Origin: Chondrosia reniformis
Lineage: Eukaryota; Porifera; Demospongiae; Chondrillida; Chondrillidae
DNA: 64,000 nucleotides
Direction of reading: 5' to 3'
Assembly: GCA_947172415.1 (NCBI GenBank)
Contig: OX359194.1
Span: 2,604,001 to 2,668,000 of the forward strand
A program made the position numbers and the translations under genes. Below, one piece after another: positions 5,342 to 64,000 of this stretch (positions within the stretch are counted from its first letter, which is position 1; the number at the start of each line of letters is the position of its first letter). The notes under the pieces are model-generated. The model did not search any database. It was not told where the DNA came from and saw nothing but the letters and a program-made list of their open reading frames with translations.

Positions 5342-5395
5342 CGCTGGATTCGGCTACAAGCAGCACACTATGACTTCAACAGAGCAGACATTTTC
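5342..5395 (-). other. Probable 5' UTR exon of the RAB3IP-like gene
   Basis: On the minus strand the sequence CCAGCG is followed by gtgagttc, a strong splice donor (exon edge at 5342). It faces the acceptor at 3518-3519, which precedes the start codon by 14 bases. The stretch 3520-5341 would then be a 5' UTR intron; I see no coding exon in it. The 5' boundary is a guess. Confidence 0.45.
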
Positions 5396-12400: not shown

Positions 12401-13520
12401 CTTTCAAGGTGGCAGTAAAGTTTGTGTCAGGGCAATTCTTCCTAAGACCAATGTTAAACAGCTATCAGACATCCCTACCATCACTACCTGTACCTAAACT
12501 GGCGGACACACTAGATAGGGTTAGTAGAGCACAAAAAGCTTTCTCTTCATTCATGATATGTTGAAGGATGCAAGTATGTACATAAATGTGTCTAGATATT
12601 TATCCATGTACAGTACGTACCTACGTACGTATGATTGAGGTCTGTTTGGCACGTACATACTGTATGTTTGTGTTTGCAGTACTTGGCAAGTGTGAGGCCC
12701 CTCCTGGGAGATGAGGAGTTCCAGGAAATGGCCAAACTGACTAAAGAGTTCAAGGTAATTGTCCAATCAGACAAGCACTCTTGTTCACTACAACTGATTG
12801 GTTGACACAGTTATAAAGTTGTTTTTCAATTACTTTTAATATTCATTTTATTCATTTTAATAGATATTCCAATTGTTTTGGTCTCATCAATTTAGGTAGT
12901 TTAGGCAATTGAAAGGCTTGTTACTCTTGTTGTTTAGCAACTAATAGTCATATATTGTAATAAATTATATACTCATCTGAGCACTGCTAATAGAAAATGG
13001 CGGCCACTGTCATAGTATGAGTTCTCTAGAGTTCACTACAACTGATTGGTTGAGACAACTACTATGTATATTGTTTCTCAATAGATATTCCAATTGATGT
13101 ACGTACTTACACGTATATGTATGTATGTACGTACATTACGTATAAGAAGCCAAATTCAGTATGATAGCTTAAATCAATCAGCAATAGTACTAGAAAGATA
13201 CATACGTAGGTAGTTTCCCATGCACCAAAACCTCATCCTCTACTCCTTCCCTCAGTCTGGACCTGGTAAGAAGCTTCAGTGGTACTTGTACCTCAAGTCC
13301 TGGTGGTCCAGCAACTATGTGACTGATTGGTGGGAGAGCTACGTGTACCTGTATGGGCGGAGTCCTATCATGATAAACAGCAACTATTATGCATGTGACT
13401 GTCAGACCAGCCCCTTAACACACAAGCAGTCAGCAAGAGCAGCCTTTCTGATGAACTTCATGATGATTCTGAAGAAAAATATTGAGACAGAGAAGCTTCG
13501 ACCAGTATGTTTAATGTGTG

Positions 13521-13552
<32 letters not shown>

Positions 13553-19040: not shown

Positions 19041-19536
19041 CCCTACTAATCCACCTTGCAACTTTCAAGAACTCAAAACTCTAATTTTATAGATCCTCTT
19101 AAGCCTCCATTGTAACATATACGTATGTATGTACGTACCTTTAATGCATATAATATTATTAGTATCTTTAATTGTATATAAATATATATTCTGTTATTTG
19201 GAGTATATGTTACATATGCATACGTATACATACGTATGTGTAATAACCTACATATGTATGTATATATACGTATATACATAATATAAAGATTTTGTGATAA
19301 AATTAAACTAGAAAAGTAAACTTTTAAAGTTGCTTTATACTTATATATGCTACCCAATATTCAATGAAGTTTTACAAACACATCATTTGTCATTGAACAA
19401 TGTGATAAGTACATGTTTTGTAAAATGTTTGCTGTATCTTTAACTGTGTCTAAGGTTCAATATTAAATCTAGTGTACTATAGAAGATGTAAGTTACAGTA
19501 TATTCCTTTCACAGTTCATCTTTGACAGGTTTGTTT

Positions 19537-30100: not shown

Positions 30101-33100
30101 AGAGAAAGCTAATTTTAAGCTAGAAAACGAAAGCTAGCCGAACGTCCGCCATTTTTTGACAGATATATATATATACAAGACTACGAACAGGAAGCCATAC
30201 ATTAACATAATTTCTGAAAACAATATAGGGGCGCCTGCGGCGCCCCAATAACTGTATTCTCGCCATTAACCATAGGGATAATATATAATAAAAAGAGTTG
30301 CCATATATTGTGTAACCTCATCACCTGAATATGGAGGCTTGATAGCAGTCTATGGACTCATAAATAACTTTAAATGGTAAACATAGAGAAGTTATGACTG
30401 AAACGGAATTGAGAAAACCTTAAAATGGAAAATGCTTTTTTGAAACAGAAAATCATACGGTTCAACATTATATATATATTTAACTTTGATATTCTTTTCA
30501 GATAGACATACACTTTGGCATCATGATGCTTTAATCACAGTTCAGGAAGTAATTATGAATAACATCCTACTTCAGGAAATTAATTAAACTAAATGTCTTA
30601 TAGCATCATGATGATGGGCCTATCTGATTGATGGTATCAATTTATATAAGGATGCACACCTTCATTATCCCTGAAGGTACTTTAATCTCCTCTAATCTCT
30701 CTGATTGTGCAATTTCAATAAACAGTTCTGTCCACTCATGAACTGAAAGTTCCAGGCCATTCAATGTACACTCTAGAGATGATGAAATGGGAGTTTCTTC
30801 AGTGGCATCATACCAGGAACCAAAAAAATTTTCTACACCTGTAGTGAGGAAGTAGCTGTTTTGAGTGCACATACTACTACTGATGATAATTGGTTACTAG
30901 TGTGACATGCCATACCAGCACTGAAATGAGTAAGGATGGCCCAACTATAGCTAGTTTGGAAGATAGGATAATTAGAGTGGGGCGTGGGTGAGGGGTTTGG
31001 TGTATGCTCTAAGGTACGTATAAAATAACAAAGGGATTCATGCATAGTATACATAATATACATATATTTGCACACAAAGGTCTTTGAAATGATATTGTAC
31101 ACATGTACTTACTAAGATCAAAATACTCGGAGTCCATATTGATGTACACTTCTGTGGTGCTTTTATTGTATAAAGCACCAAGTAATAGTGACCTCATCAG
31201 TGGAAAACTTCTTACATCCCCACACAGTATACAAAATCTTTTCAGAGAAGGTAATTTCTCTAGTGCCGCTTTAATGCTTTCATGCATAATAGGATCAGCT
31301 GGCTCATTAGTTTCCTTTTAAATGAAACAGAAATTGGTCAGATATCACAACATGTAGACTTTGATCTGTACTGTAAACACAAAATTCTTCTCGCTAAAAA
31401 TATGATTGGAAACATTCAAATCTTTTTGCTATGCTAAATATAATTAAATGGATACTATTTTACACCAGCAGTCACACATTCATGTAAATAAATTCAACTG
31501 GATGACAGCTATCATGGTCCTAAATATGTATACTGCATTATTTTTCAACTGTTATATAGGTATTACTATACATAAACATACAGTACATCTATCTTATTGT
31601 AACTTGGAGCAAACTTCATGAAGTCCAAACTCTGAAATAATTGATTACTCAATTTGTAAAGTATTTGTTGTTACACAGTCCACTTTACATACCTTTTGGC
31701 AAATATTCAGACGCAATGCAACTTGTTTTAGAGGCTTCACTTGAGCAATATTACTGACAAGAACTGTCCACTGTTGTAAAGTGAGTGACAGTTCAATGAA
31801 GCACTTCTGACAATTCACAAGACACTCTTCAGGTATATTAAGAGTTAAATTGTTTTCACCTGCAATAATAAAGGTCATGCAATGCTGTGTGTCTAGGTGA
31901 AGGTACAGATGTATGGGAAAAAGTGGAGATATGGCTGTTTAAATTGAGCCATCTAGTCCTACCATACACATGTACACATCAATAAAATTGTAAAGACTCA
32001 CCAATTATAATTATAGATAAATCATTTACATATCTATTCTGCAACACTCCTGATACCATAGATTCAATTGTACTTATAGAGTCACTCCCTTCTTCTAGAT
32101 TCAGTTGTTCAACATGTAGATTCTTCATGACAATTTCTATGTCAGAGTCACCGGTATCTTCCTATAATATATGGATAATTAACATAAGCTACGTATATAC
32201 ACATAGGAAAATCAACTTTTGAATCAATGCCTATACGTACATACGTATATACATCGGATTTAACTGGGCTTACATATAAAATTAACTTCAATCTTTAGGA
32301 AGGCTCTTGGTACTTTTAATAATTTAGACACTCTACTGATGTATGCAGTTTGTATTTTCTTCTTAGTTGAAATGTTTCACCAATAAGAAAAGCAAAAATA
32401 CCAACACTTAAGATGACTCATCTTTAAGACATTGAAATTTGACAACACAATTGCAAAGTATGATTGTTATAAAACTGACATATATCTTTAAAGTATAAAT
32501 TCACTTATATAATTAATTATTTAAAATTACTTTTGTCTGAATACAACGGGACAGGTAAACTTCCTTCATTGCCTTGTCAATTCCTTTTAGAAGTTTTGCC
32601 AATTGATTTGAAGTAAGTTTCATATGTATAAGATTTAGCTTCTGACAGGACACAAGGCACTTTTCTGGTATGATAATACTGCAGTCTTCTGTGAAATAAT
32701 ATATTTATACAGTGCAAATACGTATATATGTATATATATACTGAATAGTAGAAAAATTTGATATAATTTTAACATTTAATTTGACAGTTTGGCTTTAGAA
32801 TGGGCTTTATTTCAGTCTTTAAAATTTGATTGTGTTGCAGTTCCAGTCAATCGTCATTTACATTGCCACTTGGTCAGGTTATCATAGTAGCCAGCTGTAA
32901 TTTTGTTTTATATATGCTAACATGTCTGTGGTCTGGTTATCACCAAAGTATACCACACTCATGGGCCACCAAAGTATACCACACCGATGGACCACCAAAG
33001 TATGCCACACTGATGGACCACCAAAGTATACCACATTCATGGGCCACCAAAGTATACCACACCGATGGGCCACCAAAGTATGCCACACTGATGGGCCACC

Positions 33101-36100
33101 AAAGTATGCCACACTGATGGACCACCAAAGTATACCACATTCATGGGCCACCAAAGTATACCACACTGATGGGCCACCAAAGTATACCACACTCATGGGC
33201 CACCAAAGTATACCACACTGAACCAAACTCATGGGCCACCAAAGTATGCCACACTGATGGGCCACCAAAGTATGCCACACTGATGGGCCACCAAAGTATA
33301 CCACACTCATGGGCCACCAAAGTATACCACACTCATGGGCCACCAAAGTATACCACACTGATGGGCCACCAAAGTATGCCACACTGATGGGCCACCAAAG
33401 TATGCCACACTGATGGACCACCAAAGTATACCACATTCATGGGCCACCAAAGTATACCACACTCATGGGCCACCAAAGTATACCACATTCATGGGCCACC
33501 AAAGTATACCACACTCATGGGCCACCAAAGTATACCACACTGAACCACACTCATGGGCCACCAAAGTATACCACACTGATGGGCCCTATATGAGGAGGTT
33601 GAAACAGTTGTCTATTGTCATTTGGCTGGTTTGGCATAACATCTTCCAGTGATGATCTATATTGACACTAAATCAACAGTGGTGGGGTATGGCCACCAAA
33701 AGTGGTGGTAGTACAATGGTGACTAATTTATGTTTGTACCCATAAATGTAGCTTATAGACACATATTAATAAGTACACGTAACACTCTTACCATCTACTG
33801 TAATTGTTTTAATTTCGAGTGCTGTCAAGTGCTGTTGAGACAATATTGCTGGAAGAACAAGATGAAAATGAGTCTTTACACTCTCCGATGACATAATCTT
33901 TAGTGCACGAATCTTATCATGATGTTGAAGTGTATACTGTAAAACTACAGTCTCATATGTTGAATTTATACGAAAAAATAGTTCATCTTCAATAATTTGT
34001 GGAAGACATTGTTGTGAGAGTTCCTTATTGTCAGCTTCAAAGAATGAAATCATCAAAAGCATTTTTAAATCGTTTAAATAACACTGTTCTAAAACTCTAG
34101 TGAAATTATACATAGGATCTGATATGTGAAGTGATTGGTCATCTCTGGCGGGTAGTTGAGTGTTATCCGATTGGCCATCTCTGGCAGGTAGTTGAGTGTT
34201 ATCCGATTGGCCATCTCTGGCAGGTAGTTGAGTGTTATCCGATTGGCCATCTCTGGCAGGTGGTTGAGTGTTATCCGATTGGTCATCTCTGGCAGGTAGT
34301 TGAGTGTTATCCGATTGGCCATCTCTGGCAGGTAGTTGAGTGTTATCCGATTGGCCATCTCTGGCAGGTAGTTGAGTGTTATCCGATTGGCCATCTCTGG
34401 CAGGTAGTTGAGTGTTATCCGATTGGTCATCTCTGGCAGGTAGTTGAGTGATATCCGATTGGTCATCTCTGGCAGGTAGTTGAGTGTTATCCGATTGGCC
34501 ATCTCTGGCAGGTAGTTGAGTGTTATCTGATTGGCCATCTCTGGCAGGTAGTTGAGTGTTATCCGATTGGTCATCTCTGGCGGGTAGTTGAGTGTTATCC
34601 GATTGGTCATCTCTGGCAGGTAGTTGAGTGTTATCCGATTGGTCATCTCTGGCAGGTAGTTGAGTGTTATCCGATTGGTCATCTCTGGCAGGTAGTTGAG
34701 TGTTATCCGATTGGCCATCTCTGGCAGGTAGTTGAGTGTTATCCGATTGGTCATCTCTGGCAGGTAGTTGAGTGTTATCCGATTGGTCATCTCTGGCAGG
34801 TAGTTGAGTGTTATCCGATTGGTCATCTCTGGCAGGTAGTTGAGTGTTATCCGATTGGTCATCTCTGGCAGGTAGTTGAGAGAAGACGGTGGGTAGTAGA
34901 GAGAAGACATCAATGTTTTGAAGTTTTGTGAAGTTACAGTAAAATTTCCACACTTCAGCCATTTCAGGTCTTCCGAACTGCTCACTCCAGATCCTCTGTT
35001 GTTCCAGCTTACTCTGTTTGGCAATATGGACAGCTGCTAGAGCCTCTTGGACTGTTTTGTGGACAAATGTAAACAGCTGTATAGGAAGATCCAAATCAGC
35101 TGCTGACTCAGCAAAAAGGAGCTCATAGATACTTCCTCGCTTTGCTAACTTCAACATCTCTTTCCCAAGGTCATTGTCAGAAAGAACCAGCTGCTGTATG
35201 ACACAAAATGTATAGGAGATTTGACATAATGAGGAAAACTCTGGGAAGATGTCTTCTGGGATTTCAAGAATGCTTGTCAATTTAATTTTCAAATGAGAAT
35301 CATGAAGTAACTGCCTCTTTATATACAGACTATAGATTCCACCCATGGTATGCGGTAGCCCTTTGTCCTCTAGGTATTCCTGAACTTTACAGATTATCTT
35401 CAGTACTATTGGAAGTCGACACATGCCTTTCACTAAAGGAAGGATTTGCAATTTCTTTTTCAGCCTCTCAGCCATTTCCAGACCTCCAGTCCTTTGGAAG
35501 TAATTGTCAATAAAAGAATGAATCTTCTCTTCTGTAAAACCAAGAATTTCAACATGAACACAATTGTGTTCCATTCCAGCTAGTACTTTAGGGCAAGCAA
35601 AGGGTCTTGTGGTGACAATCAAGTCACATTCATCCAAACAGCAGGAGGAAGGAGACAGCAGCTTCTTCATGAAAGAGCTTTTCATCATATCTTCACTTAT
35701 CTCATCGTAGCCATCAAGAATGAGTAGGATACCTTTGCCTCCTGTCTTCAGTAACCTATCAATGATAGAAGGCACATCACATCGGCTGGAATACTTAGCC
35801 AAGAAATGATTAAATGTTAAGTCCTCATTCTTCTTCAGGCAGTAAGTTAGTTCTCGAAGATGGAAGAGAAGGACTAATTGATAGTCATTTGGGAGAATCC
35901 CTGATGAGAGGTCCTTACAGTACTTCCTGGAGAGGGTGGTCTTACCACAGCCTGGGGGTCCACTGATGACTATTCGCTTACCAGAAACATATTTGCTTGA
36001 AGAAAGAACATCTTCATATCTGATTGATTCAGAATTTTTGTACCAATTATCAATTCCTTCTATTACAGCACAAACGAAGTCAGAGACATCTCTTTCTTTC

Positions 36101-47199: not shown

Positions 47200-49051
47200 T
47201 TAGGTAGGGCAAATATCCATCAAAATTCATTGGAAATGTTTTATACATGTCTGCATACGTCGACACCAATTTGTTGCATAACAAGTTAGATATTAGTAAC
47301 TTGATTTCAGACAAATGTGATCTGTGATTTTAATTATATATATATGGTAAGATATATAGGCAATTATAAGTGAACATCAAAATTTGCAAAACTCTTTGGA
47401 TATGTTTTATGGATGTTTGTGAATGCTGTGACCAAGTTTCAGCTTGATATCAGTCCATTTGAATGAGTTGGAGCATTAAATGTACATTAGATTCTGGTAT
47501 ACAAAGTTAATGTATGGTGAGATAAATCTAGGGCAAATATAAGTGAACATCAAAATTTGCAAAACTCCTTGGATATGTTTTATGGATGTCTGTGAATGCT
47601 GTGACCAAGTTTCAGCTTGATATCTGTCCATTTGAATGAGTTGGAGCATTAAATGTACATTAGATTCTGTTATACCAAGTTAATGTATGGTGAGATATAG
47701 GGCAAATATGAGTGAACATCAAAATTTGCAAAACTCTTTGGATATGTTTTATGGATGTCTGTGAATGCTGTGACCAAGTTTCAGCTTGATATCTGTCCAT
47801 TTGAATGAGTTGGAGCATTAAATGTACATTAGATTCTGGTATAAAAAGTTAATGTATGGTGAGATATAGGGCAAATATAAGTGAACATCAAAATTTGCAA
47901 AACTCTTTGTATATGGTTAATGAATGTCTGTGAATGCTGTGACCAAGTTTCAGCTTGATATCAGTCCATTTGAATGAGCTGGAGCATTAAATGTACATTA
48001 GATTCTGGTATACAAAGTTAATGTATGGTGAGATATAGGGCAAATATGAGTGAACATCAAAATTTGCAAAACTCTTTGTATATGGTTTATGGATGTCTGT
48101 GAATGCTGTGACCAAGTTTCAGCTTGATATCAGTCCATTTAAATGAGTTGGAGCATTAAATGTACATTAGATTCTGGTATACAAAGTTAATGTATGGTGA
48201 GATATATATAGGGCAAATATGAGTGAACATCAAAATTTGCAAAACTCTTTGGATATGTTTTATGGATGTCTGTGAATGCTGTGACCAAGTTTCAGCTTGA
48301 TATCAGTCCATTTGAATGCTCGAGTTGGAGCATGAAATGTATATTAGATTCTGGTATACAAAGTTAATGTACTTATTGTGAGATATAGGGCAAATATGAG
48401 TGAACATCAAAATTTGCAAAACTCTTGGGATATGGTTTATGGATGTCTGTGAATGCTGTGACCAAGTTTCAGCTTGATATCAGTCCATTTGAATGAGTTG
48501 GAGCATTGAATGTACATTAGATTCTGGTATACAAAGTAAATGTATGGTGAGATATAGGGCAAATATAAGTGAACATCAAAATTTGCAAAACTCCTTGGAT
48601 ATGGTTTATGGATGTCTGTGAATGCTGTGACCAAGTTTCAGCTTGATATCAGTCCATTTGAATGAGTTGGAGCATTAAATGTACATTAGATTCTGGTATA
48701 AAAAGTTAATGTATGGTGAGATATAGGGCAAATATAAGTGAACATCAAAATTTGCAAAACTCTTTGTATATGGTTAATGTATGTCTGTGAATGCTGTGAC
48801 CAAGTTTCAGCTTGATATCTGTCCATTTGAACGAGCTGGAGTATTAAATGTACATTAGATTCTGGTATACAAAGTTAATATATGGTGAGATATAGGGCAA
48901 ATATGAGTGAACATCAAAATTTGCAAAACTCTTTGTATATGGTTAATGAATGTCTGTGAATGCTGTGACCAAGTTTCAGCTTGATATCTGTCCATTTGAA
49001 TGAGTTGGAGCATTAAATGTACATTAGATTCTGGTATAAAAAGTTAATGTA
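47200..49051 (+). repeat. 169-bp satellite, forward block A1
   Basis: About 10-11 tandem units with a period of 169 bp, measured between successive gggcaaat motifs at 47531, 47700, 47869 and 48038. Each unit includes gtgaacatcaaaatttgcaa, gtgaccaagtttcagcttga and tgtacattagattctggtat. The first unit (about 47200-47345) is strongly diverged, as expected at an array edge. Ends at a TACGTA joint at 49050-49055. Confidence 0.95.
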
Positions 49052-49313
49052 CGTATCTCTCACCATACATTAAATTTGTATACAAGAATATAATGTACAT
49101 TTAGTGCTGTAACTCTGTCAATTGGAAAGATGTGAAGCTGAAACTTGCTGTCAGCATTCACAGCTATCCTTAAAGCATATCCAAAGAGTTTTACAAATTT
49201 TGATGTTCACTCATATTTGCCCTATATCTCACCATACTTTAAATTTGTATACAAGAATCTAATCTACATTTAGTGCCGTAACTCTGTCAATTGGAAAGAT
49301 ATGAAGCTGAAAC

Positions 49314-50035
49314 CTCTTGGCTGTATGCACATATAGCTATACAGTATATCCTGCTAGTTTTGTAAAATTTCAAAAAAGGATACCCGAGTTACTGCAGATC
49401 GAAAAATACCCTATTCTAAAGTATTGAAGATTCGCCAACCACAAGCGTTTTCATAGGCAATTACTTTATTTAAATAGAAGATAAAACCTTATAATAGTAG
49501 GCCTACCTGGACACATCTCTATGGTGGTTGCGGTTCCCATAGAGGTTGGTAGCGCTTAGACTCTGAAGCTGTCTCCTAATCGGTTGGTGCCATAGAGACG
49601 TGCTCACCAATAATCCGGATTTCGGGGGGGTTCCACGTAATGTGGGATTGGCATCTGATATCTTAGGATTCATATGAGTCGGCCATATCGAGAAGAACTG
49701 GTTCTTCTCACGCAAGTGACACCCAAAGCTCAACTCGGCAGAGCGTTACCACCGATCCCGGCCTCTGAGCGTCGTGGATGGTAGCGTTCGGTATGGTCCA
49801 ATTTTTTTCCTTTGGAGTTTCTTTAGCAGTCGATTGACGATTTTTCACTTTAGCGACATCCATATATTATAATATGGACAGATACTACTTCAAAACAATC
49901 AAGTATTACAGAGTGAATATCCATGTGCATTAAAATCTTTAAAAGCGTTCTCGTCATTCAAATATACATATAAAAGTAACGTATTTTCAATATTCCCTCT
50001 CTAGGTCGGCCATTTATATTATTACGAAACTCCCG
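49314..50035. repeat. 722-bp embedded element, copy 1
   Basis: Starts ctcttggctgtatgc and ends gaaactcccg. It replaces about half of a satellite unit at exactly the same break in all copies. It is GC-richer than the satellite and contains stem-forming segments, including ctctatgg/ccatagag. No terminal inverted repeat or coding domain is recognised. Confidence 0.9.
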
Positions 50036-52488
50036 TACATTAAATTTCTATACAAGAATCTAATGTACATTTAGTGCTGTAACTCTGTCAATTGGAAAGA
50101 TGTGAAGCTGAAACTTGGTGTTAGCATTCACAGACATCCTTAAAGCATATCCAAAGAGTTTTACAAATTTTGATGTGTACTCATATTTGTCCTATCTCTC
50201 ACCATACATTAAATTTGTATACAAGAATCTAATGTACATTTAGTGCTGTAACTCTGTCAATTGGAAAGATATGAAGCTGAAACTTGCTGTCAGCATTCAC
50301 AGATATCCATAAAACATATCCAAAGAGTTTTACAAATTTTGATGTTCACTCATATTTGCCCTATCTCTCACCATACATTAAATTTGTATACAAGAATCTA
50401 ATGTACATTTAGTGCTGTAACTCTGTCAATTGGAAAGATATGAAGCTGAAACTTGGTGTTAGCATTCACAGACATCCTTAAAGCATATCCTAAGAGTTTT
50501 ACAAATTTTGATGTGTACTCATATTTGTCCTATCTCTCACCATACATTAAATTTGTATAGCAGAATCTAATGTACATTTAGTGCTGTAACTCTGTCAATT
50601 GGAAAGATATGAAGCTGAAACTTGCTGTCAGCATTCACAGACATCCATAATACATATCCAAAGAGTTTTACAAATTTTGATGTTCACTCATATTTGCCCT
50701 ATCTCTCACCATACATTAAATTTGTATACAAGAATCTAATGTACATTTAGTGCTGTAACTCTGTCAATTGGAAAGATGTGAAGCTGAAACTTGGTGTTAG
50801 CATTCACAGACATCCTTAAAGCATATCCAAAGAGTTTTACAAATTTTGATGTGTACTCATATTTGTCCTATCTCTCACCATACATTAAATTTGTATAGCA
50901 GAATCTAATGTACATTTAGTGCTGTAACTCTGTCAATTGGAAAGATATGAAGCTGAAACTTGCTGTCAGCATTCACAGACATCCATAAAACATATCCAAA
51001 GAGTTTTACAAATTTTGATGTTCACTCATATTTGCCCTATCTCTCACCATACATTAAATTTGTATACAAGAATCTAATGTACATTTAGTGCTGTAACTCT
51101 GTCAATTGGAAAGATGTGGAGCTGAAACTTGCTGTCAGCATTCACAGACATCCTTAAAGCATATCCAAAGAGTTTTACAAATTTTGATGTTCACTCATAT
51201 TTACCCTATCTCTCACCATACGTACATTAAATTTGTATAGCAGAATCTAATGTACATTTAGTGCTGTAACTCTGTCAATTGGAAAGATGTGGAGCTGAAA
51301 CTTGTTGTCAGCATTCACAGACATCCTTAAAGCATATCCAAAGAGTTTTACAAATTTTGATGTTCTATCATATTTGCCCTATCTCTCACCATACATTATA
51401 TTTGTATAGCAGAATCTAATGTACATTTAGTGCTGTAACTCTGTCAATTGGAAAGATGTGAAGCTGAAACTTGCTGTCAGCATTCACAGCTATCCTTAAA
51501 GCATATCCAAAGAGTTTTGAAAATTTTGATGTTCACTCATATTTGCCCTATATCTCACCATACTTTAAATTTGTATACAAGAATCTAATGTACATTTAGT
51601 GCTGTAACTCTGTCAATTGGAAAGATGTGAAGCTGAAACTTGCTGTCAGCATTCACAGACATCCATAAACTATATCCAAAGAGTTTTGCAAATTTTGATG
51701 TTCACTCATATTTGCCCTACGTATCTCTCACCATACATTAAATTTGTATACAAGAATCTAATGTACATTTAGTGGTGTAACTCTGTCAATTTGAAAGATG
51801 TGAAGCTGAAACTTCCTGTCAGCATTCACAGACATCCTTAAAGCATATCCAAAGAGTTTTACAAATTTTGATGTTCTATCATATTTGCCCTATCTCTCAC
51901 CATACATTATATTTGTATAGCAGAATCTAATGTACATTTAGTGCTGTAACTCTGTCAATTGGAAAGATGTGAAGCTGAAACTTCCTGTCAGCATTCACAG
52001 ACATCCTTAAAGCATATCCAAAGAGTTTTACAAATTTTGATGTTCTATCATATTTGCCCTATCTCTCACCATACATTATATTTGTATAGCAGAATCTAAT
52101 GTACATTTAGTGCTGTAACTCTGTCAATTGGAAAGATGTGAAGCTGAAACTTGCTGTCAGCATTCACAGACATCCTTAAAGCATATCCAAAGAGTTTTAC
52201 AAATTTTGATGTTCACTCATATTTGCCCTATCTCTCACCATACATTAAATTTGTATACAAGAATCTAATGTACATTTAGTGGTGTAACTCTGTCAATTTG
52301 AAAGATGTGAAGCTGAAACTTCCTGTCAGCATTCACAGACATCCATAAATCATATCCAAAGAGTTTTACAAATTTTGATGTTCACTCATATTTGCCCTAT
52401 ATCTCACCATACTTTAAATTTGTATACAAGAATCTAATGTACATTTAGTGGTGTAACTCTGTCAATTGGAAAGATATGAAGCTGAAAC

Positions 52489-53211
52489 CTCTTGGCTGTA
52501 TGCACATATAGCTATACAGTATATCCTGCTAGTTTTGTAAAATTTCAAAAAAGGATACCCGAGTTACTGCAGATCGAAAAATACCCTATTCTAAAGTATT
52601 GAAGATTCGCCAACCACAAGCGTTTTCATAGGCAATTACTTTATTTAAATAGAAGATAAAACCTTATAATAGTAGGCCTACCTGGACACATCTCTATGGT
52701 GGTTGCGGTTCCCATAGAGGTTGGTAGCGCTTAGACTCTGAAGCTGTCTCCTAATCGGTTGGTGCCATAGAGACGTGCTCACCAATAATCCGGATTTCGG
52801 GGGGGTTCCACGTAATGTGGGATTGGCATCTGATATCTTAGGATTCATATGAGTCGGCCATATCGAGAAGAACTGGTTCTTCTCACGCAAGTGACACCCA
52901 AAGCTCAACTCGGCAGAGCGTTACCACCGATCCCGGCCTCTGAGCGTCGTGGATGGTAGCGTTCGGTATTGTCCAATTTTTTTCCTTTGGAGTTTCTTTA
53001 GCAGTCGATTGACGATTTTTCACTTTAGCGACATCCATATATTATAATATGGACAGATACTACTTCAAAACAATCAAGTATTACAGAGTGAATATCCATG
53101 TGCATTAAAATCTTTAAAAGCGTTCTCGTCATTCAAATATACATATAAAAGTAACGTATTTTCAATATTCCCTTCTCTAGGTCGGCCATTTATATTATTA
53201 CGAAACTCCCG
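52489..53211. repeat. 722-bp embedded element, copy 2
   Basis: Nearly identical to copy 1. Differences seen: gtattgtcc for gtatggtcc near 52968 and one extra T in cccttctctagg. Confidence 0.9.
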
Positions 53212-53797
53212 TACATTAAATTTCTATACAAGAATCTAATGTACATTTAGTGCTGTAACTCTGTCAATTGGAAAGATGTGAAGCTGAAACTTCCTGTCAG
53301 CATTCACAGACATCCTTAAAGCATATCCAAAGAGTTTTACAAATTTTGATGTTCTATCATATTTGCCCTATCTCTCACCATACATTATATTTGTATAGCA
53401 GAATCTAATGTACATTTAGTGCTGTAACTCTGTCAATTGGAAAGATGTGAAGCTGAAACTTGCTGTCAGCATTCACAGACATCCTTAAAGCATATCCAAA
53501 GAGTTTTACAAATTTTGATGTTCACTCATATTTGCCCTATCTCTCACCATACATTAAATTTGTATACAAGAATCTAATGTACATTTAGTGGTGTAACTCT
53601 GTCAATTTGAAAGATGTGAAGCTGAAACTTCCTGTCAGCATTCACAGACATCCATAAATCATATCCAAAGAGTTTTACAAATTTTGATGTTCACTCATAT
53701 TTGCCCTATATCTCACCATACTTTAAATTTGTATACAAGAATCTAATGTACATTTAGTGGTGTAACTCTGTCAATTGGAAAGATATGAAGCTGAAAC

Positions 53798-54520
53798 CTC
53801 TTGGCTGTATGCACATATAGCTATACAGTATATCCTGCTAGTTTTGTAAAATTTCAAAAAAGGATACCCGAGTTACTGCAGATCGAAAAATACCCTATTC
53901 TAAAGTATTGAAGATTCGCCAACCACAAGCGTTTTCATAGGCAATTACTTTATTTAAATAGAAGATAAAACCTTATAATAGTAGGCCTACCTGGACACAT
54001 CTCTATGGTGGTTGCGGTTCCCATAGAGGTTGGTAGCGCTTAGACTCTGAAGCTGTCTCCTAATCGGTTGGTGCCATAGAGACGTGCTCACCAATAATCC
54101 GGATTTCGGGGGGGTTCCACGTAATGTGGGATTGGCATCTGATATCTTAGGATTCATATGAGTCGGCCATATCGAGAAGAACTGGTTCTTCTCACGCAAG
54201 TGACACCCAAAGCTCAACTCGGCAGAGCGTTACCACCGATCCCGGCCTCTGAGCGTCGTGGATGGTAGCGTTCGGTATTGTCCAATTTTTTTCCTTTGGA
54301 GTTTCTTTAGCAGTCGATTGACGATTTTTCACTTTAGCGACATCCATATATTATAATATGGACAGATACTACTTCAAAACAATCAAGTATTACAGAGTGA
54401 ATATCCATGTGCATTAAAATCTTTAAAAGCGTTCTCGTCATTCAAATATACATATAAAAGTAACGTATTTTCAATATTCCCTTCTCTAGGTCGGCCATTT
54501 ATATTATTACGAAACTCCCG
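53798..54520. repeat. 722-bp embedded element, copy 3
   Basis: Shares both copy 2 differences (gtattgtcc and the extra T), so copies 2 and 3 are sisters; only 586 bp of satellite separates them. Confidence 0.9.
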
Positions 54521-55279
54521 TACATTAAATTTCTATACAAGAATCTAATGTACATTTAGTGCTGTAACTCTGTCAATTGGAAAGATGTGAAGCTGAAACT
54601 TGGTGTTAGCATTCACAGACATCCTTAAAGCATATCCAAAGAGTTTTACAAATTTTGATGTGTACTCATATTTGTCCTATCTCTCACCATACATTAAATT
54701 TGTATACAAGAATCTAATGTACATTTAGTGCTGTAACTCTGTCAATTGGAAAGATATGAAGCTGAAACTTGCTGTCAGCATTCACAGATATCCATAAAAC
54801 ATATCCAAAGAGTTTTACAAATTTTGATGTTCACTCATATTTGCCCTATCTCTCACCATACGTACATTAAATTTGTATACAAGAATCTAATGTACATTTA
54901 GTGCTGTAACTCTGTCAATTGGAAAGATATGAAGCTGAAACTTGGTGTTAGCAATCACAGACATCCTTAAAGCATATCCAAAGAGTTTTACAAATTTTGA
55001 TGTGTACTCATATTTGTCCTATCTCTCACCATACATTAAATTTGTATAGCAAAATCTAATGTACATTTAGTGCTGTAACTCTGTCAATTGGAAAGATATG
55101 AAGCTGAAACTTGCTGTCAGCATTCACAGACATCCATAATACATATCCAAAGAGTTTTACAAATTTTGATGTTCACTCATATTTGCCCTATCTCTCACCA
55201 TACATTAAATTTGTATACAAGAATCTAATGTACATTTAGTGGTGTAACTCTGTCAATTGGAAAGATATGAAGCTGAAAC

Positions 55280-56002
55280 CTCTTGGCTGTATGCACATAT
55301 AGCTATACAGTATATCCTGCTAGTTTTGTAAAATTTCAAAAAAGGATACCCGAGTTACTGCAGATCGAAAAATACCCTATTCTAAAGTATTGAAGATTCG
55401 CCAACCACAAGCGTTTTCATAGGCAATTACTTTATTTAAATAGAAGATAAAACCTTATAATAGTAGGCCTACCTGGACACATCTCTATGGTGGTTGCGGT
55501 TCCCATAGAGGTTGGTAGCGCTTAGACTCTGAAGCTGTCTCCTAATCGGTTGGTGCCATAGAGACGTGCTCACCAATAATCCGGATTTCGGGGGGGTTCC
55601 ACGTAATGTGGGATTGGCATCTGATATCTTAGGATTCATATGAGTCGGCCATATCGAGAAGAACTGGTTCTTCTCACGCAAGTGACACCCAAAGCTCAAC
55701 TCGGCAGAGCGTTACCACCGATCCCGGCCTCTGAGCGTCGTGGATGGTAGCGTTCGGTATGGTCCAATTTTTTTCCTTTGGAGTTTCTTTAGCAGTCGAT
55801 TGACGATTTTTCACTTTAGCGACATCCATATATTATAATATGGACAGATACTACTTCAAAACAATCAAGTATTACAGAGTGAATATCCATGTGCATTAAA
55901 ATCTTTAAAAGCGTTCTCGTCATTCAAATATACATATAAAAGTACCGTATTTTCAATATTCCCTTCTCTAGGTCGGCCATTTATATTATTACGAAACTCC
56001 CG
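55280..56002. repeat. 722-bp embedded element, copy 4
   Basis: Has gtatggtcc like copies 1 and 5, the extra T of copies 2 and 3, and a private change, agtaccgtat for agtaacgtat. Confidence 0.9.
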
Positions 56003-59000
56003 TACATTAAATTTCTATACAAGAATCTAATGTACATTTAGTGCTGTAACTCTGTCAATTGGAAAGATGTGAAGCTGAAACTTGGTGTTAGCATTCACAG
56101 ACATCCTTAAAGCATATCCAAAGAGTTTTACAAATTTTGATGTTCTATCATATTTGTCCTATCTCTCACCATACATTAAATTTGTATAGCAGAATCTAAT
56201 GTACATTTAGTGCTGTAACTCTGTCAATTGGAAAGATATGAAGCTGAAACTTGCTGTCAGCATTCACAGACATCCATAATACATATCCAAAGAGTTTTAC
56301 AAATTTTGATGTTCACTCATATTTGCCCTATCTCTCACCATACATTAAATTTGTATACAAGAATCTAATGTACATTTAGTGCTGTAACTCTGTCAATTGG
56401 AAAGATGTGAAGCTGAAACTTGGTGTTAGCATTCACAGACATCCTTAAAGCATATCCAAAGAGTTTTACAAATTTTGATGTTCACTCATATTTGTCCTAT
56501 CTCTCACCATACATTAAATTTGTATAGCAGAATCTAATGTACATTTAGTGCTGTAACTCTGTCAATTGGAAAGATATGAAGCTGAAACTTGCTGTCAGCA
56601 TTCACAGACATCCATAAAACATATCCAAAGAGTTTTACAAATTTTGATGTGTACTCATATTTGTCCTATCTCTCACCATACATTAAATTTGTATACAAGA
56701 ATCTAATGTACATTTAGTGCTGTAACTCTGTCAATTGGAAAGATGTGAAGCTGAAACTTGGTGTTAGCATTCACAGACATCCTTAAAGCATATCCAAAGA
56801 GTTTTACAAATTTTGATGTGTACTCATATTTGTCCTATCTCTCACCATACATTAAATTTGTATAGCAGAATCTAATGTACATTTAGTGCTGTAACTCTGT
56901 CAATTGGAAAGATATGAAGCTGAAACTTGCTGTCAGCATTCACAGACATCCATAAAACATATCCAAAGAGTTTTACAAATTTTGATGTTCACTCATATTT
57001 GTCCTATCTCTCACCATACATTAAATTTGTATAGCAGAATCTAATGTACATTTAGTGCTGTAACTCTGTCAATTGGAAAGATATGAAGCTGAAACTTGCT
57101 GTCAGCATTCACAGACATCCATAAAACATATCCAAAGAGTTTTACAAATTTTGATGTTCACTCATATTTGCCCTATCTCTCACCATACATTAAATTTGTA
57201 TACAAGAATCTAATGTACATTTAGTGCTGTAACTCTGTCAATTGGAAAGATGTGGAGCTGAAACTTGCTGTCAGCATTCACAGACATCCTTAAAGCATAT
57301 CCAAAGAGTTTTACAAATTTTGATGTTCACTCATATTTGCCCTATCTCTCACCATACATTAAATTTGTATACAAGAATCTAATGTACATTTAGTGCTGTA
57401 ACTCTGTCAATTGGAAAGATGTGGAGCTGAAACTTGTTGTCAGCATTCACAGACATCCTTAAAGCATATCCAAAGAGTTTTACAAATTTTGATGTTCACT
57501 CATATTTACCCTATCTCTCACCATACGTACATTAAATTTGTATACCAGAATCTAATGTACATTTAGTGCTGTAACTCTGTCAATTGGAGAGATGTGAAGC
57601 TGAACCTTGCTGTCAGCATTCACAGACATACATAAAGCATATCCAAAGAGTTTTACAAATTTTGATGTGTACTCATATTTGTCCTATCTCTCACCATACA
57701 TTAAATTTGTATACAAGAATCTAATGTACATTTAGTGAAAAAACTCTATCAATTGGAAAGATGTGAAGCTGAAACTTGTTGTCAGCATTCACAGACATAC
57801 ATAAAGCATATCCAAAGAGTTTTACAAATTTTGATGTTCACTCATATTTGCCCTATCTCTCACCATACGTACATTAAATTTGTATAGCAGAATCTAATGT
57901 ACATTTAGTGCTGTAACTCTGTCAATTGGAAAGATGTGAAGCTGAAACTTGCTGTCAGCATTCACAGCTATCCTTAAAGCATATCCAAAGAGTTTTGAAA
58001 ATTTTGATGTTCACTCATATTTGCCCTATATCTCACCATACTTTAAATTTGTATACAAGAATCTAATGTACATTTAGTGCTGTAACTCTGTCAATTGGAG
58101 AGATGTGAAGCTGAACCTTGCTGTCAGCATTCACAGACATACATAAAGCATATCCAAAGAGTTTTACAAATTTTGATGTGTACTCATATTTGTCCTATCT
58201 CTCACTATACATTAAATTTGTATACAAGAATCTAATGTACATTTAGTGAAAAAACTCTATCAATTGGAAAGATGTGAAGCTGAAACTTGTGGTCAGCATT
58301 CACAGACATACATAAAGCATATCCAAAGAGTTTTACAAATTTTGATGTTCACTCATATTTGCCCTATCTCTCACCATACGTACATTAAATTTGTATAGCA
58401 GAATTTAATGTACATTTAGTGCTGTAACTCTGTCAATTGGAAAGATGTGAAGCTGAAACTTGCTGTCAGCATTCACAGCTATCCTTAAAGCATATCCAAA
58501 GAGTTTTGAAAATTTTGATGTTCACTCATATTTGCCCTATATCTCACAATACTTTAAATTTGTATACAAGAATCTAATGTACATTTAGTGCTGTAACTCT
58601 GTCAATTTGAAAGATGTGGAGCTGAAACTTGTTGTCAGCATTCACAGACATACATAAAGCATATCCAAAGAGTTTTACAAATTTTGATGTTCACTCATAT
58701 TTGCCCTATATCTCACAATACTTTAAATTTGTATACAAGAATCTAATGTACATTTAGTGCTGTAACTCTGTCAATTTGAAAGATGTGAAGCTGAAACTTG
58801 CTGTCAGCATTCACAGACATCCTTAAAGCATATCCAAAGAGTTTTACAAATTTTGATGTTCACTCATATTTGCCCTATCTCTCACCATACATTAAATTTG
58901 TATAGCAGAATCTAATGTACATTTAGTGCTGTAACTCTGTCAATTGGAAAGATGTGGAGCTGAAACTTGTTGTCAGCATTCACAGACATCCATAAATCAT

Positions 59001-59135
59001 ATCCAAAGAGTTTTACAAATTTTGATGTTCACTCATATTTGCCCTATATCTCACCATACTTTAAATTTGTATACAAGAATCTAATGTACATTTAGTGGTA
59101 TAACTCTGTCAATTGGAAAGATATGAAGCTGAAAC

Positions 59136-59857
59136 CTCTTGGCTGTATGCACATATAGCTATACAGTATATCCTGCTAGTTTTGTAAAATTTCAAAAAAG
59201 GATACCCGAGTTACTGCAGATCGAAAAATACCCTATTCTAAAGTATTGAAGATTCGCCAACCACAAGCGTTTTCATAGGCAATTACTTTATTTAAATAGA
59301 AGATAAAACCTTATAATAGTAGGCCTACCTGGACACATCTCTATGGTGGTTGCGGTTCCCATAGAGGTTGGTAGCGCTTAGACTCTGAAGCTGTCTCCTA
59401 ATCGGTTGGTGCCATAGAGACGTGCTCACCAATAATCCGGATTTCGGGGGGGTTCCACGTAATGTGGGATTGGCATCTGATATCTTAGGATTCATATGAG
59501 TCGGCCATATCGAGAAGAACTGGTTCTTCTCACGCAAGTGACACCCAAAGCTCAACTCGGCAGAGCGTTACCACCGATCCCGGCCTCTGAGCGTCGTGGA
59601 TGGTAGCGTTCGGTATGGTCCAATTTTTTTCCTTTGGAGTTTCTTTAGCAGTCGATTGACGATTTTTCACTTTAGCGACATCCATATATTATAATATGGA
59701 CAGATACTACTTCAAAACAATCAAGTATTACAGAGTGAATATCCATGTGCATTAAAATCTTTAAAAGCGTTCTCGTCATTCAAATATACATATAAAAGTA
59801 ACGTATTTTCAATATTCCCTCTCTAGGTCGGCCATTTATATTATTACGAAACTCCCG
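59136..59857. repeat. 722-bp embedded element, copy 5
   Basis: Matches copy 1 at both diagnostic sites (gtatggtcc, no extra T). Separated from copy 4 by about 3.1 kb of satellite. Confidence 0.9.
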
Positions 59858-60360
59858 TACATTAAATTTCTATACAAGAATCTAATGTACATTTAGTGCT
59901 GTAACTCTGTCAATTGGAAAGATGTGAAGCTGAAACTTGGTGTTAGCATTCACAGACATCCTTAAAGCATATCCAAAGAGTTTTACAAATTTTGATGTTC
60001 ACTCATATTTGCCCTATCTCTCACCATACATTAAATTTGTATAGCAGAATCTAATGTACATTTAGTGCAATAACTCTATCAATTGGAAAGATGTGAAGCT
60101 GAAACTTGATGTTAGCATTCCCAGACATACATAAAGCATATCCAAAGAGTTTAACAAATTTTGATGTTCACTCATATTTGCCCTATCTCTCACCATACGT
60201 ACATTAAATTTGTATGCAAGAATCTAATGTACATTTAGTTCAATAACTCTGTCAATTGGAAAGATGTGGAGCTGAAACTTGTTGTCAGCATTCACAGACA
60301 TCCTTAAAGCATATCCAAAGAGTTTTACAAATTTTGATGTTCACTTATATTTGCCCTACG

Positions 60361-63300
60361 TATGGTGAGATTAAATGTACATTAGATTCTGGTATACAAA
60401 GTTAATGTATGGTGAGATATAGGGCAAATATAAGTGAACATCAAAATTTGCAAAACTCTTTGTATATGGTTAATGAATGTCTGTGAATGCTGTGACCAAG
60501 TTTCAGCTTGATAACTGTCCATTTGTATGAGTTGCAGCTTTAAGTGTACATAAATTCTGGTATACAAAGTTAATGTATAGTGACAGAGTTACGTATGGTG
60601 AGAGATATAGAGCAAATTTGAGCAGATATATATCAAAAATTGCAAAACTCATTGAAAACCTTTCATACATCTCTGTGAACAATGACATAGAGTTTCAGAT
60701 TCATATCTCTTCATTTGGAAGAGTTACAACACTTATTGTATTTTAAATTACTGCTATACGAATTGAATGTACGTATAGGGCAAATATGAGTGAACATCAA
60801 AATTTTCCAAAGTCTTTGAATATGTTTTATGGATGTCTGTGAATGCTGTGACCAAGTTTCAGCTGGATATCTGTCCATTTGAATGAGTTGGAGCATTAAA
60901 TGTACATTAGATTCTGGTATACAAAGTTAATGTATGGTGAGATATAGGGCAAATATGAGTGAACATCAAAATTTGCAAAACTCTTGGGATATGGTTTATG
61001 GATGTCTGTGAATGCTGTGACCAAGTTTCAGTTTGATATCTGTCCATTTGAATGAGTTGGAGCATTAAATGTACATTAGATTCTGGTATACAAAGTTAAT
61101 GTATGGTGAGATAAATACGTATAGGGCAAATATAAGTGAACATCAAAATTTGTAAAACTCTTTGTATATGGTTAATGAATGTCTGTGAATGCTGTGACCA
61201 AGTTTCAGCTTGATATCAGTCCATTTGAATGAGTTGGAGCATTAAATGTACATTAGATTCTGGTATACAAAGTTAATGTATGTTGAGATATAGAGCAAAT
61301 ATGAGTGAACATCAAAATTGGCAAAACTCTTTGGAAATGTTTTATGGATGTCTGTGAATGCTGTGACCAAGTTTCAGCTTGATATCTGTCCATTTGAATG
61401 AGTTGGAGCATTAAATGTACATTAGATTATGGTATACAAAGTTAATGTACGTATAATGAGATATAGGGCAAATATGAGTGAACATCAAAATTTGTAAAAC
61501 TCTTTGTATATGGTTAATGAATGTCTGTGAATGCTGTGACCAAGTTTCAGCTTGATATCAGTCTATTTGAATGAGTTGCAGCATTAAATGTACAATAGAT
61601 TCTGGAATACAAAGTTAATGTATAATGAGATATAGGGCAAATATATATAAGTGAACATTAAAATTTTCAAAACTCCTTGGATATATTTTATGGATGTCTG
61701 TGAATGCTGTGACCAAGTTTCAGCTTGATATCAGTCCATTTGAATGAGTTGGAGCATTAAATGTACATTAGATTCTGGTATAAAAAGTTAATGTATGGTG
61801 AGATATAGGGTAAATATAAGTGAACATCAAAATTTGTAAAACTCTTTGTATATGGTTAATGTATGTCTGTGAATGCTGTGACCAAGTTTCAGCTTGATAT
61901 CTGTCCATTAGAGCGAGCTGGAGCATTAAATGTACATTAGATTCTGGTATACAAAGTTAATGTATGGTGAGATATAGGGCAAATATGAGTGAACATCAAA
62001 ATTTGCAAAACTCTTGGGATATGGTTTATGGATGTCTGTGAATGCTGTGACCAAGTTTCAGTTTGATATCTGTCCATTTGAATGAGTTGGAGCATTAAAT
62101 GTACATTAGATTTTGGTATACAAAGTTAATGTATGGTGAGATAAATACGTATAGGGCAAATATAAGTGAACATCAAAATTTGTAAAACTCTTTGTATATG
62201 GTTAATGAATGTCTGTGAATGCTGTGACCAAGTTTCAGCTTGATATCAGTCCATTTGAATGAGTTGCAGCATTAAATGTACATTAGATTCTGGTATATAT
62301 ACAAAGTTAATGTATGGTGAGATATAGGGCAAATATGAGTGAACATCAAAATTTGCTAAACTCTTTGGAAATGTTTTATGGATGTCTGTGAATGCTGTGA
62401 CCAAGTTTCAGCTTGATATCAGTCCATTTGAATGAGTTGGAGCATTAAATGTACATTAGATTCTGGTATACAAAGTTAATGTATGGTGAGATATAGAGCA
62501 AATATGAGTGAACATCAAAATTTGCAAAACTCTTTGGAAATGTTTTATGGATGTCTGTGAATGCTGTGACCAAGTTTCAGCTTGATATCTGTCCATTTGA
62601 ATGAGTGGGAGCATTAAATGTACATTAGATTATGGTATACAAAGTTAATGTACGTATAATGAGATATAGGGCAAATATAAGTGAACATCAAAATTTGTAA
62701 AACTCTTTGTATATGGTTAATGAATGTCTGTGAATGCTGTGACCAAGTTTCAGCTTGATATCAGTCCATTTGAATGAGTTGCAGCATTAAATGTACAATA
62801 GATTCTGGTATAAAAAGTTAATGTATGGTGAGATATAGGGCAAATATATATAAGTGAACATCAAAATTTTCAAAACTCTTTGTATATGGTTAATGTATGT
62901 CTGTGAATGCTGTGACCAAGTTTCAGCTTGATATCTGTCCATTTGAACGAGCTGGAGCATTAAATGTACATTAGATTCTGGTATACAAAGTTAATGTATT
63001 GTGAGATATTGGGCAAATATGAGTGAACATCAAAATTTGCAAAACTCTTTGTATATGGTTTATGGATGTCTGTGAATGCTGTGACCAAGTTTCAGCTTGA
63101 TATCTGTCCATTTGAATGAGTTGGAGCATTAAATGTACATTAGATTCTGGAATACAAAGTTAATGTATGGTGAGATATAGGGCAAATATAAGTGAACATC
63201 AAAATTTGTAAAACTCTTTGGAAATGTTTTATGGATGTCTGTGAATGCTGTGACCAAGTTTCAGCTTGATATCTGTCCATTTGAATGAGTTGCAGCATTA

Positions 63301-64000
63301 AATGTACATTAGATTCTGGTATAAAAAGTTAATGTATGGTGAGATATAGGGCAAATATGAGTGAACATCAAAATTTGCAAAACTCCCTTGGATATGGTTT
63401 ATGGATGTCTGTGAATGCTGTGACCAGGTTTCAGCTTGATATCTGTCCATTTGAATGAGTTGGAGCATTAAATGTACATTAGATTTTGGTATACAAAGTT
63501 AATGTATGGTGAGATATAGGGCAAATATGAGTGAACATCAAAATTTGCAAAACTCTTTGGAAATGTTTTATGGATGTCTGTGAATACTGTGACCAAGTTT
63601 CAGCTTGATATCTGTCCATTTGAATGAGTTACAGCATTAAATGTACATTAGATTCTGGTATAAAAAGTTAATGTATGGTGAGATATAGGGCAAATATGAG
63701 TGAACATCAAAATTTGCAAAACTCTTTGGATATGTTTTATGGATGTCTGTGAATGCTGTGACCAAGTTTCAGCTTGATATCTTTCCATTTGAATGAGTTG
63801 CAGCATTAAATGTACATTAGATTCTGGTATAAAAAGTTAATGTATGGTGAGATATAGGGCAAATATGATTGAACATCAAAATTTGCACAACTCCTTGGAT
63901 ATGGTTTATGGATGTCTGTGAATGCTGTGACCAAGTTTCAGCTTGATATCTGTCCATTTGAATGAGTTGGAGCATGAAATGTATATTAGATTCTGGTATA
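60361..64000 (+). repeat. 169-bp satellite, forward block A2, continuing past the window
   Basis: About 21 units in the same orientation and subfamily as block A1. The first few (60530-60780) are diverged. Several units carry extra TACGTA (61448-61453, 62651-62656) or TATA insertions. The array reaches the right edge. Confidence 0.95.

What the first reader, a model, noticed from the sequence alone, without database searches (positions are those of the whole stretch)
49050..60362. Both satellite inversion joints read TA-CG-TA
At 49050-49055 a forward unit ending ttaatgTA is joined through CG to TAtctctcaccatac of the inverted subfamily. At 60357-60362 the inverted unit ending tttgcccTA is joined through CG to TAtggtgagat of the forward subfamily. 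Two independent ends of an 11.3-kb inversion carry the same 6-base joint, and each side can be lined up with a TA in the parent unit. This looks like a scar of a TA-directed break-and-join process (transposase-like or nuclease plus repair) that leaves CG. The mechanism is inference.
Basis: partly seen in the sequence, partly recalled or inferred. Interest (0 to 1): 0.75.

Follow-up and report, generated by a model that had tools for sequence, protein, structure and literature searches.

The report
Satellite DNA switches direction at TACGTA
In a sponge genome, blocks of a 169-base tandem repeat are repeatedly joined in opposite directions at one short sequence, TACGTA, at two fixed places in the repeat, which points to a specific cutting-and-joining process rather than to random breakage.

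Summary
Both joints are exact (49050-49055, 60357-60362). By length match the window is chromosome 6 of the sponge Chondrosia reniformis. The 11.3-kb block reads better as an inverted insertion of a genome-dispersed satellite subfamily than as a local inversion. They use two TA sites (alpha, beta) flanking a 10-base spacer, in 24 diverged arm-pair classes, 17 with TACGTA, against 47 of 399 ordinary alpha and 3 of 389 ordinary beta sites. Two of six measured blocks are whole units plus 4 bases; one restores a clean empty site. Ordinary units show the same change in place: 96 of 176 small insertions are exactly 4 bases. Against a simple scar: TACGTA is common genome-wide, occurs in units that are not joints, and some switches lack it. 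TA-directed cutting and joining with CG ends is my best explanation (0.43); exchange at pre-existing TACGTA palindromes is the main rival. New variant of a known kind.

The parts
47343..49051 (+). Left outer satellite array, 169-bp units, local subfamily F
   Evidence: Tandem Repeats Finder, period 169, 10 copies, 93% matches
49050..49055 (.). Joint 1: outer palindrome side (P) of alpha | CG | beta-opened end of the inner block
   Evidence: same joint at 13 other sites, one of them TACGTACGTA
49052..60358 (-). Inner block, subfamily R, read in the opposite direction; satellite interrupted by five 722-723-bp inserts
   Evidence: the joint-adjacent R unit is up to 98.8% identical to R units of other chromosomes
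49314..50035 (+). 722-bp insert (truncated core), first copy
52489..53211 (+). 723-bp insert, second copy
   Evidence: query
53798..54520 (+). 723-bp insert, third copy
55280..56002 (+). 723-bp insert, fourth copy
59136..59857 (+). 722-bp insert, fifth copy
51219..51224 (.). In-place TACGTA at alpha in an ordinary R unit (others at 54859, 57524, 57866, 58377, 60196)
   Evidence: sampled alpha sites with TACGTA are not boundaries between unlike neighbours
51718..51723 (.). In-place TACGTA at beta in an R unit
60357..60362 (.). Joint 2: inner block opened at beta | CG | outer array at alpha
   Evidence: same joint at 11 further sites, one of them TACGTACGTA
60590..60775 (+). One unit of another subfamily (J-like) in the same direction, with TACGTA at both of its ends
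   Evidence: subfamily judged by eye
60361..64000 (+). Right outer array, subfamily F; runs to about 0.6 kb beyond the window
61116..61121 (.). In-place TACGTA in the right outer array (beta at 61116 and 62146; alpha at 61448 and 62651)

Best explanation
Whole-unit blocks of a 169-bp satellite have repeatedly been joined into other arrays of the same superfamily in opposite orientation, at two TA dinucleotides (alpha and beta) that flank a 10-base spacer, and most joints read TA-CG-TA. The most likely mechanism is a TA-directed break-and-join process whose broken ends carry a two-base CG overhang. CG is self-complementary, so such ends can rejoin in place (TA to TACGTA, a 4-base insertion), or join another alpha or beta end in either direction (inverted joints, spacer deletions, spacer duplications). 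Satellite circles of n whole units, opened at beta and inserted at alpha, would give the observed blocks. SHOWN: the joints, the site choice, the end combinations, the whole-unit block length at two of six measured loci, the clean empty site at one locus, the 4-base insertion class. INFERRED: the enzyme, the overhang, the circles, that the joints are separate events, and that CG is made at the join.
For: With the gap left free, 32 of 49 orientation-switch sites have TACGTA and 5 have TACATA/TATGTA. Among 24 arm-pair classes 17 have TACGTA and 1 a decay form; binomial 3e-11 against 12% if classes are independent. For the 14 alpha|beta joints compared, outer arms are 63-84% identical between subfamily groups while inner arms are 93-98% between groups, C10 apart; with samples of equal size, joint-adjacent inner units show no clear kinship among themselves across chromosomes. 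TACGTA occurs with P|beta-spacer, P|P, beta-spacer|beta-spacer, G|alpha-spacer and alpha-spacer|alpha-spacer, in direct spacer deletion (3 of 17) and in one spacer duplication. Blocks at C9:6.143 Mb and C9:6.720 Mb are 3x169+4 and 8x169+4, and the outer flanks of the first restore an uninterrupted unit around one TA. In 492 aligned units 96 of 176 insertions, and 28 of 51 distinct ones, are exactly 4 bases, CGTA after TA the commonest (52), against 4 of 34 deletions. At C9:6.72 Mb six of six joints carry TACGTA while 0 of 28 outer alpha, 0 of 16 inner alpha and 0 of 11 inner beta sites counted do; these six may be tandem copies of one pair.
Against: TACGTA is enriched genome-wide, sits in a 4-base TA lattice like a tetranucleotide repeat, and occurs in 47 of 399 ordinary alpha sites whose neighbours are no less alike than elsewhere (mean 0.931 v 0.921; median 0.927 v 0.933). 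12 of 49 switch sites have neither TACGTA nor a decay form; in the fetched loci 11 of 37 have none. The one G|G site reads TACATG. Only 3 of 17 direct spacer-deletion sites have TACGTA. Mean identity between joint-adjacent inner units is slightly higher than to internal units in 13 of 13 cases (by 0.001-0.010), so some common descent is possible. The ends of the moved block are not inverted repeats of each other beyond CGTA. No convincing TA-flanked element with CG ends was found in the window. Five core copies showed no excess of 4-base TA insertions. Four of six measured blocks are not whole units plus 4; three of these hold the long inserts, and the C5 block was not looked into.
Confidence: 0.43

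Rival explanations
1. Exchange at pre-existing TACGTA. Short self-complementary (TACG)n tracts arise at alpha and beta by a microsatellite-like process. Because TACGTA is a palindrome, strand exchange or template switching through it can join units in either direction; no base is added at the join.
For: TACGTA, TACGTACGTA, TACATA and TATGTA all occur in ordinary units at alpha; joints also show TACGTACGTA and decay forms; TACGTA alpha units are not block boundaries; 48% of TACGTA in the first 47 kb have a further TA four bases upstream, and 48% four bases downstream, against 10% background.
Against: Other palindromes in the units are far commoner (AAATTT 1112, TGTACA 547, CAATTG 332, GTATAC 292 v TACGTA 94) but hold few joints. 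Both partners would need it, yet beta sites carry it in 3 of 389 cases, and the C9:6.72 Mb arrays in none counted. In-place insertion is mostly CG-bearing (48 CGTA v 3 ATGT, 4 CATA and 1 TATG at alpha), not a copy of a neighbouring TATG.
Confidence: 0.33
2. Inherited cassette. One or a few ancestral outer-inner-outer arrangements with TACGTA joints were dispersed; outer arrays later diverged and inner arrays were homogenised.
For: The G-subfamily joints on C9 and C1 are clearly copies (outer arms 90-100%); joint-adjacent inner units are on average very slightly closer to each other than to internal units; conserved inversion sites and cassettes are known in Tribolium madens (PMC13081366, passages read).
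Against: Outer arms differ by 16-37% between groups while 32 joint CpGs are intact against 5 decayed; equal-size samples of internal units reach or exceed the best joint-to-joint identity in 50-95% of draws for all 13 units; C5 and C10 joints have other inner arms; several different end combinations exist.
Confidence: 0.17
3. Chance or assembly error: TACGTA is simply common, and inverted satellite joints can be misassembled.
For: TACGTA is 1.6 to about 20 times commoner than the comparisons used.
Against: Same joints on many chromosomes. Reversed control patterns gave no hit, and 2. The assembly is from HiFi reads, primary QV 69.8 (PMC12181767, passages read).
Confidence: 0.03

Closest known systems
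Motif-bounded satellite rearrangement in Meloidogyne (Box 1 CENP-B-box-like, Box 2; PMC3694981)
   Same: Junctions between diverged monomers lie in a short conserved motif; cut-and-paste related to transposition is proposed
   Different: Here the motif is the 6-base palindrome TACGTA at TA sites, it is seen at inverted joints, and no CENP-B-box-like match stands at the two joints
Macro-dyad symmetries and inversion sites of Tribolium madens satellites (PMC13081366)
   Same: Multi-kb inverted subarrays, recurrent inversion sites, one satellite embedded in another as a cassette
   Different: There the inversion sites are diverged subunits; here a 6-base joint recurs with diverged arms and several site combinations
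Tc1/mariner excision footprints (recalled)
   Same: TA + two bases + TA, a net 4-base insertion, fits the in-place insertions
   Different: No such element with CG ends found in the window scan; the joined pieces are satellite blocks without terminal inverted repeats
Cg_HINE non-autonomous Helentrons of oyster carrying satellite-like repeats (PMC7492417)
   Same: Dispersed satellite arrays next to a conserved core (722-723 bp insert and older core copies)
   Different: Helentron ends were not tested; cores and arrays here form tandem composites, and core orientation relative to the array varies

Membership tests
Tc1/mariner-type excision footprint | TA duplicated with two or three element bases between (recalled) | tested here: met
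   TA-CG-TA in place and at joints; 96 of 176 insertions exactly 4 bases
Tc1/mariner-type excision footprint | A TA-flanked element with terminal inverted repeats starting CG | tested here: inconclusive
   Scan of elements starting in the first 47 kb gave 50 pairs, 28 starting CG, all in TACG-type simple sequence or weak by eye; whole genome not scanned
Tc1/mariner-type excision footprint | A DDE/D transposase in the genome | not tested
CENP-B-box-mediated satellite rearrangement | CENP-B-box-like motif at the junction (motif recalled) | tested here: not met
   TTCGNNNNANNCGGG, up to 2 mismatches: 30 in window v 34.9 in shuffles; five in the 722-723-bp inserts, none at the joints
Motif-bounded satellite rearrangement | Junctions recur in one short motif across diverged units | tested here: met
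   17 of 24 arm-pair classes
Macro-dyad satellite organisation | Inverted subarrays with recurrent inversion sites | tested here: met
   37 switches in fetched loci; 49 sites by pattern
Helentron/HINE | Helentron end structure and insertion site | not tested
   Only the presence of a core beside arrays was seen

The most novel reading that the evidence does not exclude
A host or domesticated TA-specific recombinase in this sponge continually cuts TA sites and rejoins them with CG, in place or to another end in either direction. It makes the 4-base CGTA insertions, the genome-wide TACGTA excess and the orientation switches of satellite arrays, and spreads whole-unit satellite circles between chromosomes.
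Probability: 0.18. Interest if true: 0.85.

Novelty: new variant of a known kind. Interest (0 to 1): 0.6.

Why it matters
How satellite arrays change direction and move between chromosomes is usually hidden, because breakpoints inside repeats are hard to see. Here the breakpoint is a recognisable 6-base mark at two fixed places in the unit, so single events can be counted, dated and compared with empty sites, and the question of whether a transposase-like activity remodels satellites becomes testable.

Tried and rejected
Rejected: a simple local inversion (inner and outer units are different subfamilies). Rejected: the 722-723-bp insert as a CG-ended TA element; it reads TA|CGGGAG at alpha in its young copies, but older core copies share homology only from about base 7 and have other ends. 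Rejected: palindromic microhomology alone (commoner palindromes hold few joints). Rejected: TACGTA-bearing alpha units as hidden block joints (neighbour identity unchanged). Led nowhere: Rfam (no match at gathering scores); CENP-B-box scan; terminal-repeat scan for TA elements; 4-base insertions in the core; paper searches for TACGTA with satellites or excision footprints, satellite inversions, and sponge satellites or microsatellites, whose listings showed no earlier report of this joint; that does not prove absence.

Biases. Loci were fetched with queries that contain the joints, so 23 of 37 leans towards this joint. The free-gap patterns lean towards alpha and beta and, except, look only for inverted joints; they do not lean towards TACGTA. 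One search compared 42 rows of inverted joints (41 sites; one palindromic site, C11:5.32 Mb, appears on both strands, in two classes that each hold another site). Not all sites were fetched. Three non-TACGTA alpha|beta classes have arms that align at only 59-71% and may not be satellite joints; they are kept in the counts. One alpha|alpha site was merged with a beta|alpha class, because only arms were compared. by itself overstated independence: it took the best of 314 internal units against a few joint units; redid it with equal sample sizes, and I lowered the best explanation from 0.45 to 0.43 and raised the cassette rival from 0.15 to 0.17.
Full report
WHAT AND WHERE. The window is G000:C6:2604001-2668000. 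G000 has 117,379,552 bases in 15 contigs. [quoted passage not shown] search listing and passages read), and the other lengths seen agree with its Table 3 to about 0.01 Mb. Its longest scaffold (10,413,042) differs slightly from C1 (10,409,357). I take the window to be chromosome 6 of that kidney sponge. From 47343 to the end lies a 169-bp satellite.

THE TWO JOINTS. TACGTA is at 49050-49055 and 60357-60362 as described. The outer arrays on both sides are one subfamily (F). The block between them runs the other way, is about 86% complementary to F over its longest arms, and belongs to a subfamily (R) found on many chromosomes. It holds five copies of a 722-723-bp insert that is 99-100% identical at all 40 places scored, the best 40 of 945 candidates. 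The R unit next to joint 1 is up to 98.8% identical to R units on other chromosomes and up to 97.6% to others in its own segment. So the block is better read as R inserted in the opposite direction into an F array than as an inversion of F. The first outer unit after joint 2 is truncated.

IS TACGTA MORE THAN CHANCE? The word is common: 172 in the window against a mean of 8.5 in shuffles, 157 in the first 47 kb against 21 from a second-order model, 115,557 genome-wide against 71,100 for ATGCAT. Within the satellite it is nearly confined to two places. Alpha is the TA between a 32-base imperfect palindrome (P, TACATTA...TAATGTA) and the spacer TGGTGAGAGA. Beta is the TA between that spacer and GGGC. 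Of 96 TACGTA in or near the sampled satellite, 83 were classed on both sides as alpha or beta arms; of the 13 left, 10 fit by eye on at least one side and 3 lie elsewhere. All 15 in the window's satellite are at alpha or beta on at least one side. Ordinary alpha sites have it in 47 of 399 cases, beta in 3 of 389.

GENOME-WIDE TEST. I searched the genome for orientation switches with anchors on either side and a free gap between. P|spacer-from-beta: 14 of 18 sites have TACGTA, one of them TACGTACGTA. G|spacer-from-alpha, including alpha-spacer|alpha-spacer: 16 of 22 (23 rows, one palindromic site listed twice). P|P: 1 of 6, the other five TACATA or TATGTA, the expected CpG-decay forms (its reversed control also gave 2 hits, while the controls gave none). 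Spacer|spacer at beta: 1 of 2, the other TATATA. G|G: 0 of 1, TACATG. Together 32 of 49, plus 5 decayed, 12 neither. For contrast, direct spacer deletions have TACGTA at 3 of 17 sites. In the loci fetched, 37 switches were seen; 23 have TACGTA, 3 a decay form, 11 neither, but these loci were fetched with joint-bearing queries. Grouping 42 rows of inverted joints by both 140-base arms gives 24 classes, of which 17 have TACGTA, 1 a decay form and 6 neither. Against 12% this is 3e-11, if classes are independent.

INDEPENDENT OR COPIED? Some joints are copies: the C9 and C1 joints with subfamily G share outer arms at 90-100%. Among 14 alpha|beta joints, outer arms of the different groups (F, G, C4, C11, C3, C10) are only 63-84% alike, while inner arms are 93-98% alike between groups (C10 apart, 72-74%). 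With equal sample sizes, 13 joint-adjacent R units are not closer to each other across chromosomes than to internal R units (samples of internal units reach the best joint-to-joint value in 50-95% of draws), though the mean joint-to-joint identity is higher by 0.001-0.010 in all 13. C5 and C10 joints have quite different inner arms. Most joint CpGs are undecayed. This favours several insertions at the same site, or strong homogenisation up to the joint; a shared origin for part of them is not excluded.

SHAPE OF THE BLOCKS. In the common joints the inner block is opened at beta and the outer array at alpha. Of six two-sided blocks measured, start-to-start distances are 511 = 3x169+4 at C9:6.143 Mb and 1356 = 8x169+4 at C9:6.720 Mb; the other four are not of that form, three of them holding the long inserts and the C5 block not looked into. 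At C9:6.143 Mb the outer flanks read ...CCAAATTAATGTA and (TA)TGGTGAGAGATAGGGC..., an uninterrupted unit around one TA. The insertion is thus n whole units with a TA and a CG on each side. It can be read as a TA duplication with CG added, or as exchange between two TACGTA sites.

IN-PLACE CHANGE. Aligning 492 units to consensus gave 176 insertions: 66 of one base, 5 of two, 1 of three, 96 of four, 2 of six, 4 of eight and two longer. 28 of 51 distinct insertion events are of four bases, against 3 of 23 distinct deletions. CGTA after TA is commonest (48 at alpha in units aligned to R, 52 in all), then ATAT/TATA, CATA, TATT, ATGT and others. Many of the 48 may be copies of one change. One unit has a duplicated spacer joined by TACGTA. 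Units with TACGTA at alpha are not boundaries between unlike neighbours. In the first 47 kb, TA-NN-TA words are in excess over a second-order model for NN = CG (7.3x), TA (2.6x), TG (2.3x), GC (2.2x) and CA (2.0x), and at most 1.4x for the rest; 48% of TACGTA have a further TA four bases upstream, and 48% four bases downstream. Five core copies gave no sign of the 4-base class, in a small sample.

MECHANISM. One process would explain both in-place and joint forms: breaks at TA whose ends carry CG. CG pairs with itself, so any two such ends can join, in either direction. The pairs seen (P with beta-spacer, P with P, beta-spacer with beta-spacer, G with alpha-spacer, alpha-spacer with alpha-spacer, P with alpha-spacer in place, G with beta-spacer in place, P with G as spacer deletion, spacer with spacer as duplication) are nine of the ten that free joining of four end types would give; G with G was not found with TACGTA. 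At C9:6.72 Mb six of six joints have TACGTA while no counted alpha or beta site of the surrounding arrays has, which favours CG made at the join. Against it, TACGTA pre-exists at about an eighth of alpha sites, and a palindrome exchange needs no new bases. Simple palindrome exchange fails to explain why commoner palindromes are not used. No enzyme is shown. The two-base overhang is inferred by analogy with Tc1/mariner excision (recalled).

COMPARISON WITH THE KNOWN. Meloidogyne satellites have junctions in conserved motifs, with a transposition-like cut-and-paste proposed (PMC3694981; abstract, the junction section and the Discussion read). Tribolium madens satellites form macro-dyad symmetries with conserved inversion sites (PMC13081366; passages read). 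Oyster satellite-like arrays ride in non-autonomous Helentrons (PMC7492417; abstract and outline read). The present case is of the first two kinds, with a shorter and palindromic joint.

VERDICT. The origin of the CG is undecided and can be decided with the alternate haplotype and population data.

Noticed in passing
1-20000: Very dense TACGTA (126 in the first 20 kb), with runs of TACG; none between 32725 and 42320.
   Followed up: partly
49314-50035, 52489-53211, 53798-54520, 55280-56002, 59136-59857: A 722-723-bp sequence inside the R array, 99-100% identical at the 40 places scored in the genome, a truncated form of a roughly 1-kb core with older copies on C1, C2 and C6 and core orientation that differs relative to the array.
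   Followed up: partly
60590-60775: A single unit of another subfamily in the F array with TACGTA at both ends, in direct orientation.
   Followed up: partly
window satellite and fetched loci: Small insertions in the satellite are mostly exactly four bases (96 of 176), deletions are not (4 of 34).
   Followed up: yes
G000:C5:7736659-7744046: Another block of about 7.4 kb with TACGTA at one end and TACGTACGTA at the other, with outer and inner arms unlike those of the window; its inside was not fetched.
   Followed up: partly
1065-2037; 32941-33585; 34133-34880: Other tandem arrays (17-, 26/52/78- and 36-bp units) in the same window, without TACGTA.
   Followed up: no
G000:C1:172014-172699: An array of TACGTA words 34 bases apart (listing).
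   Followed up: no
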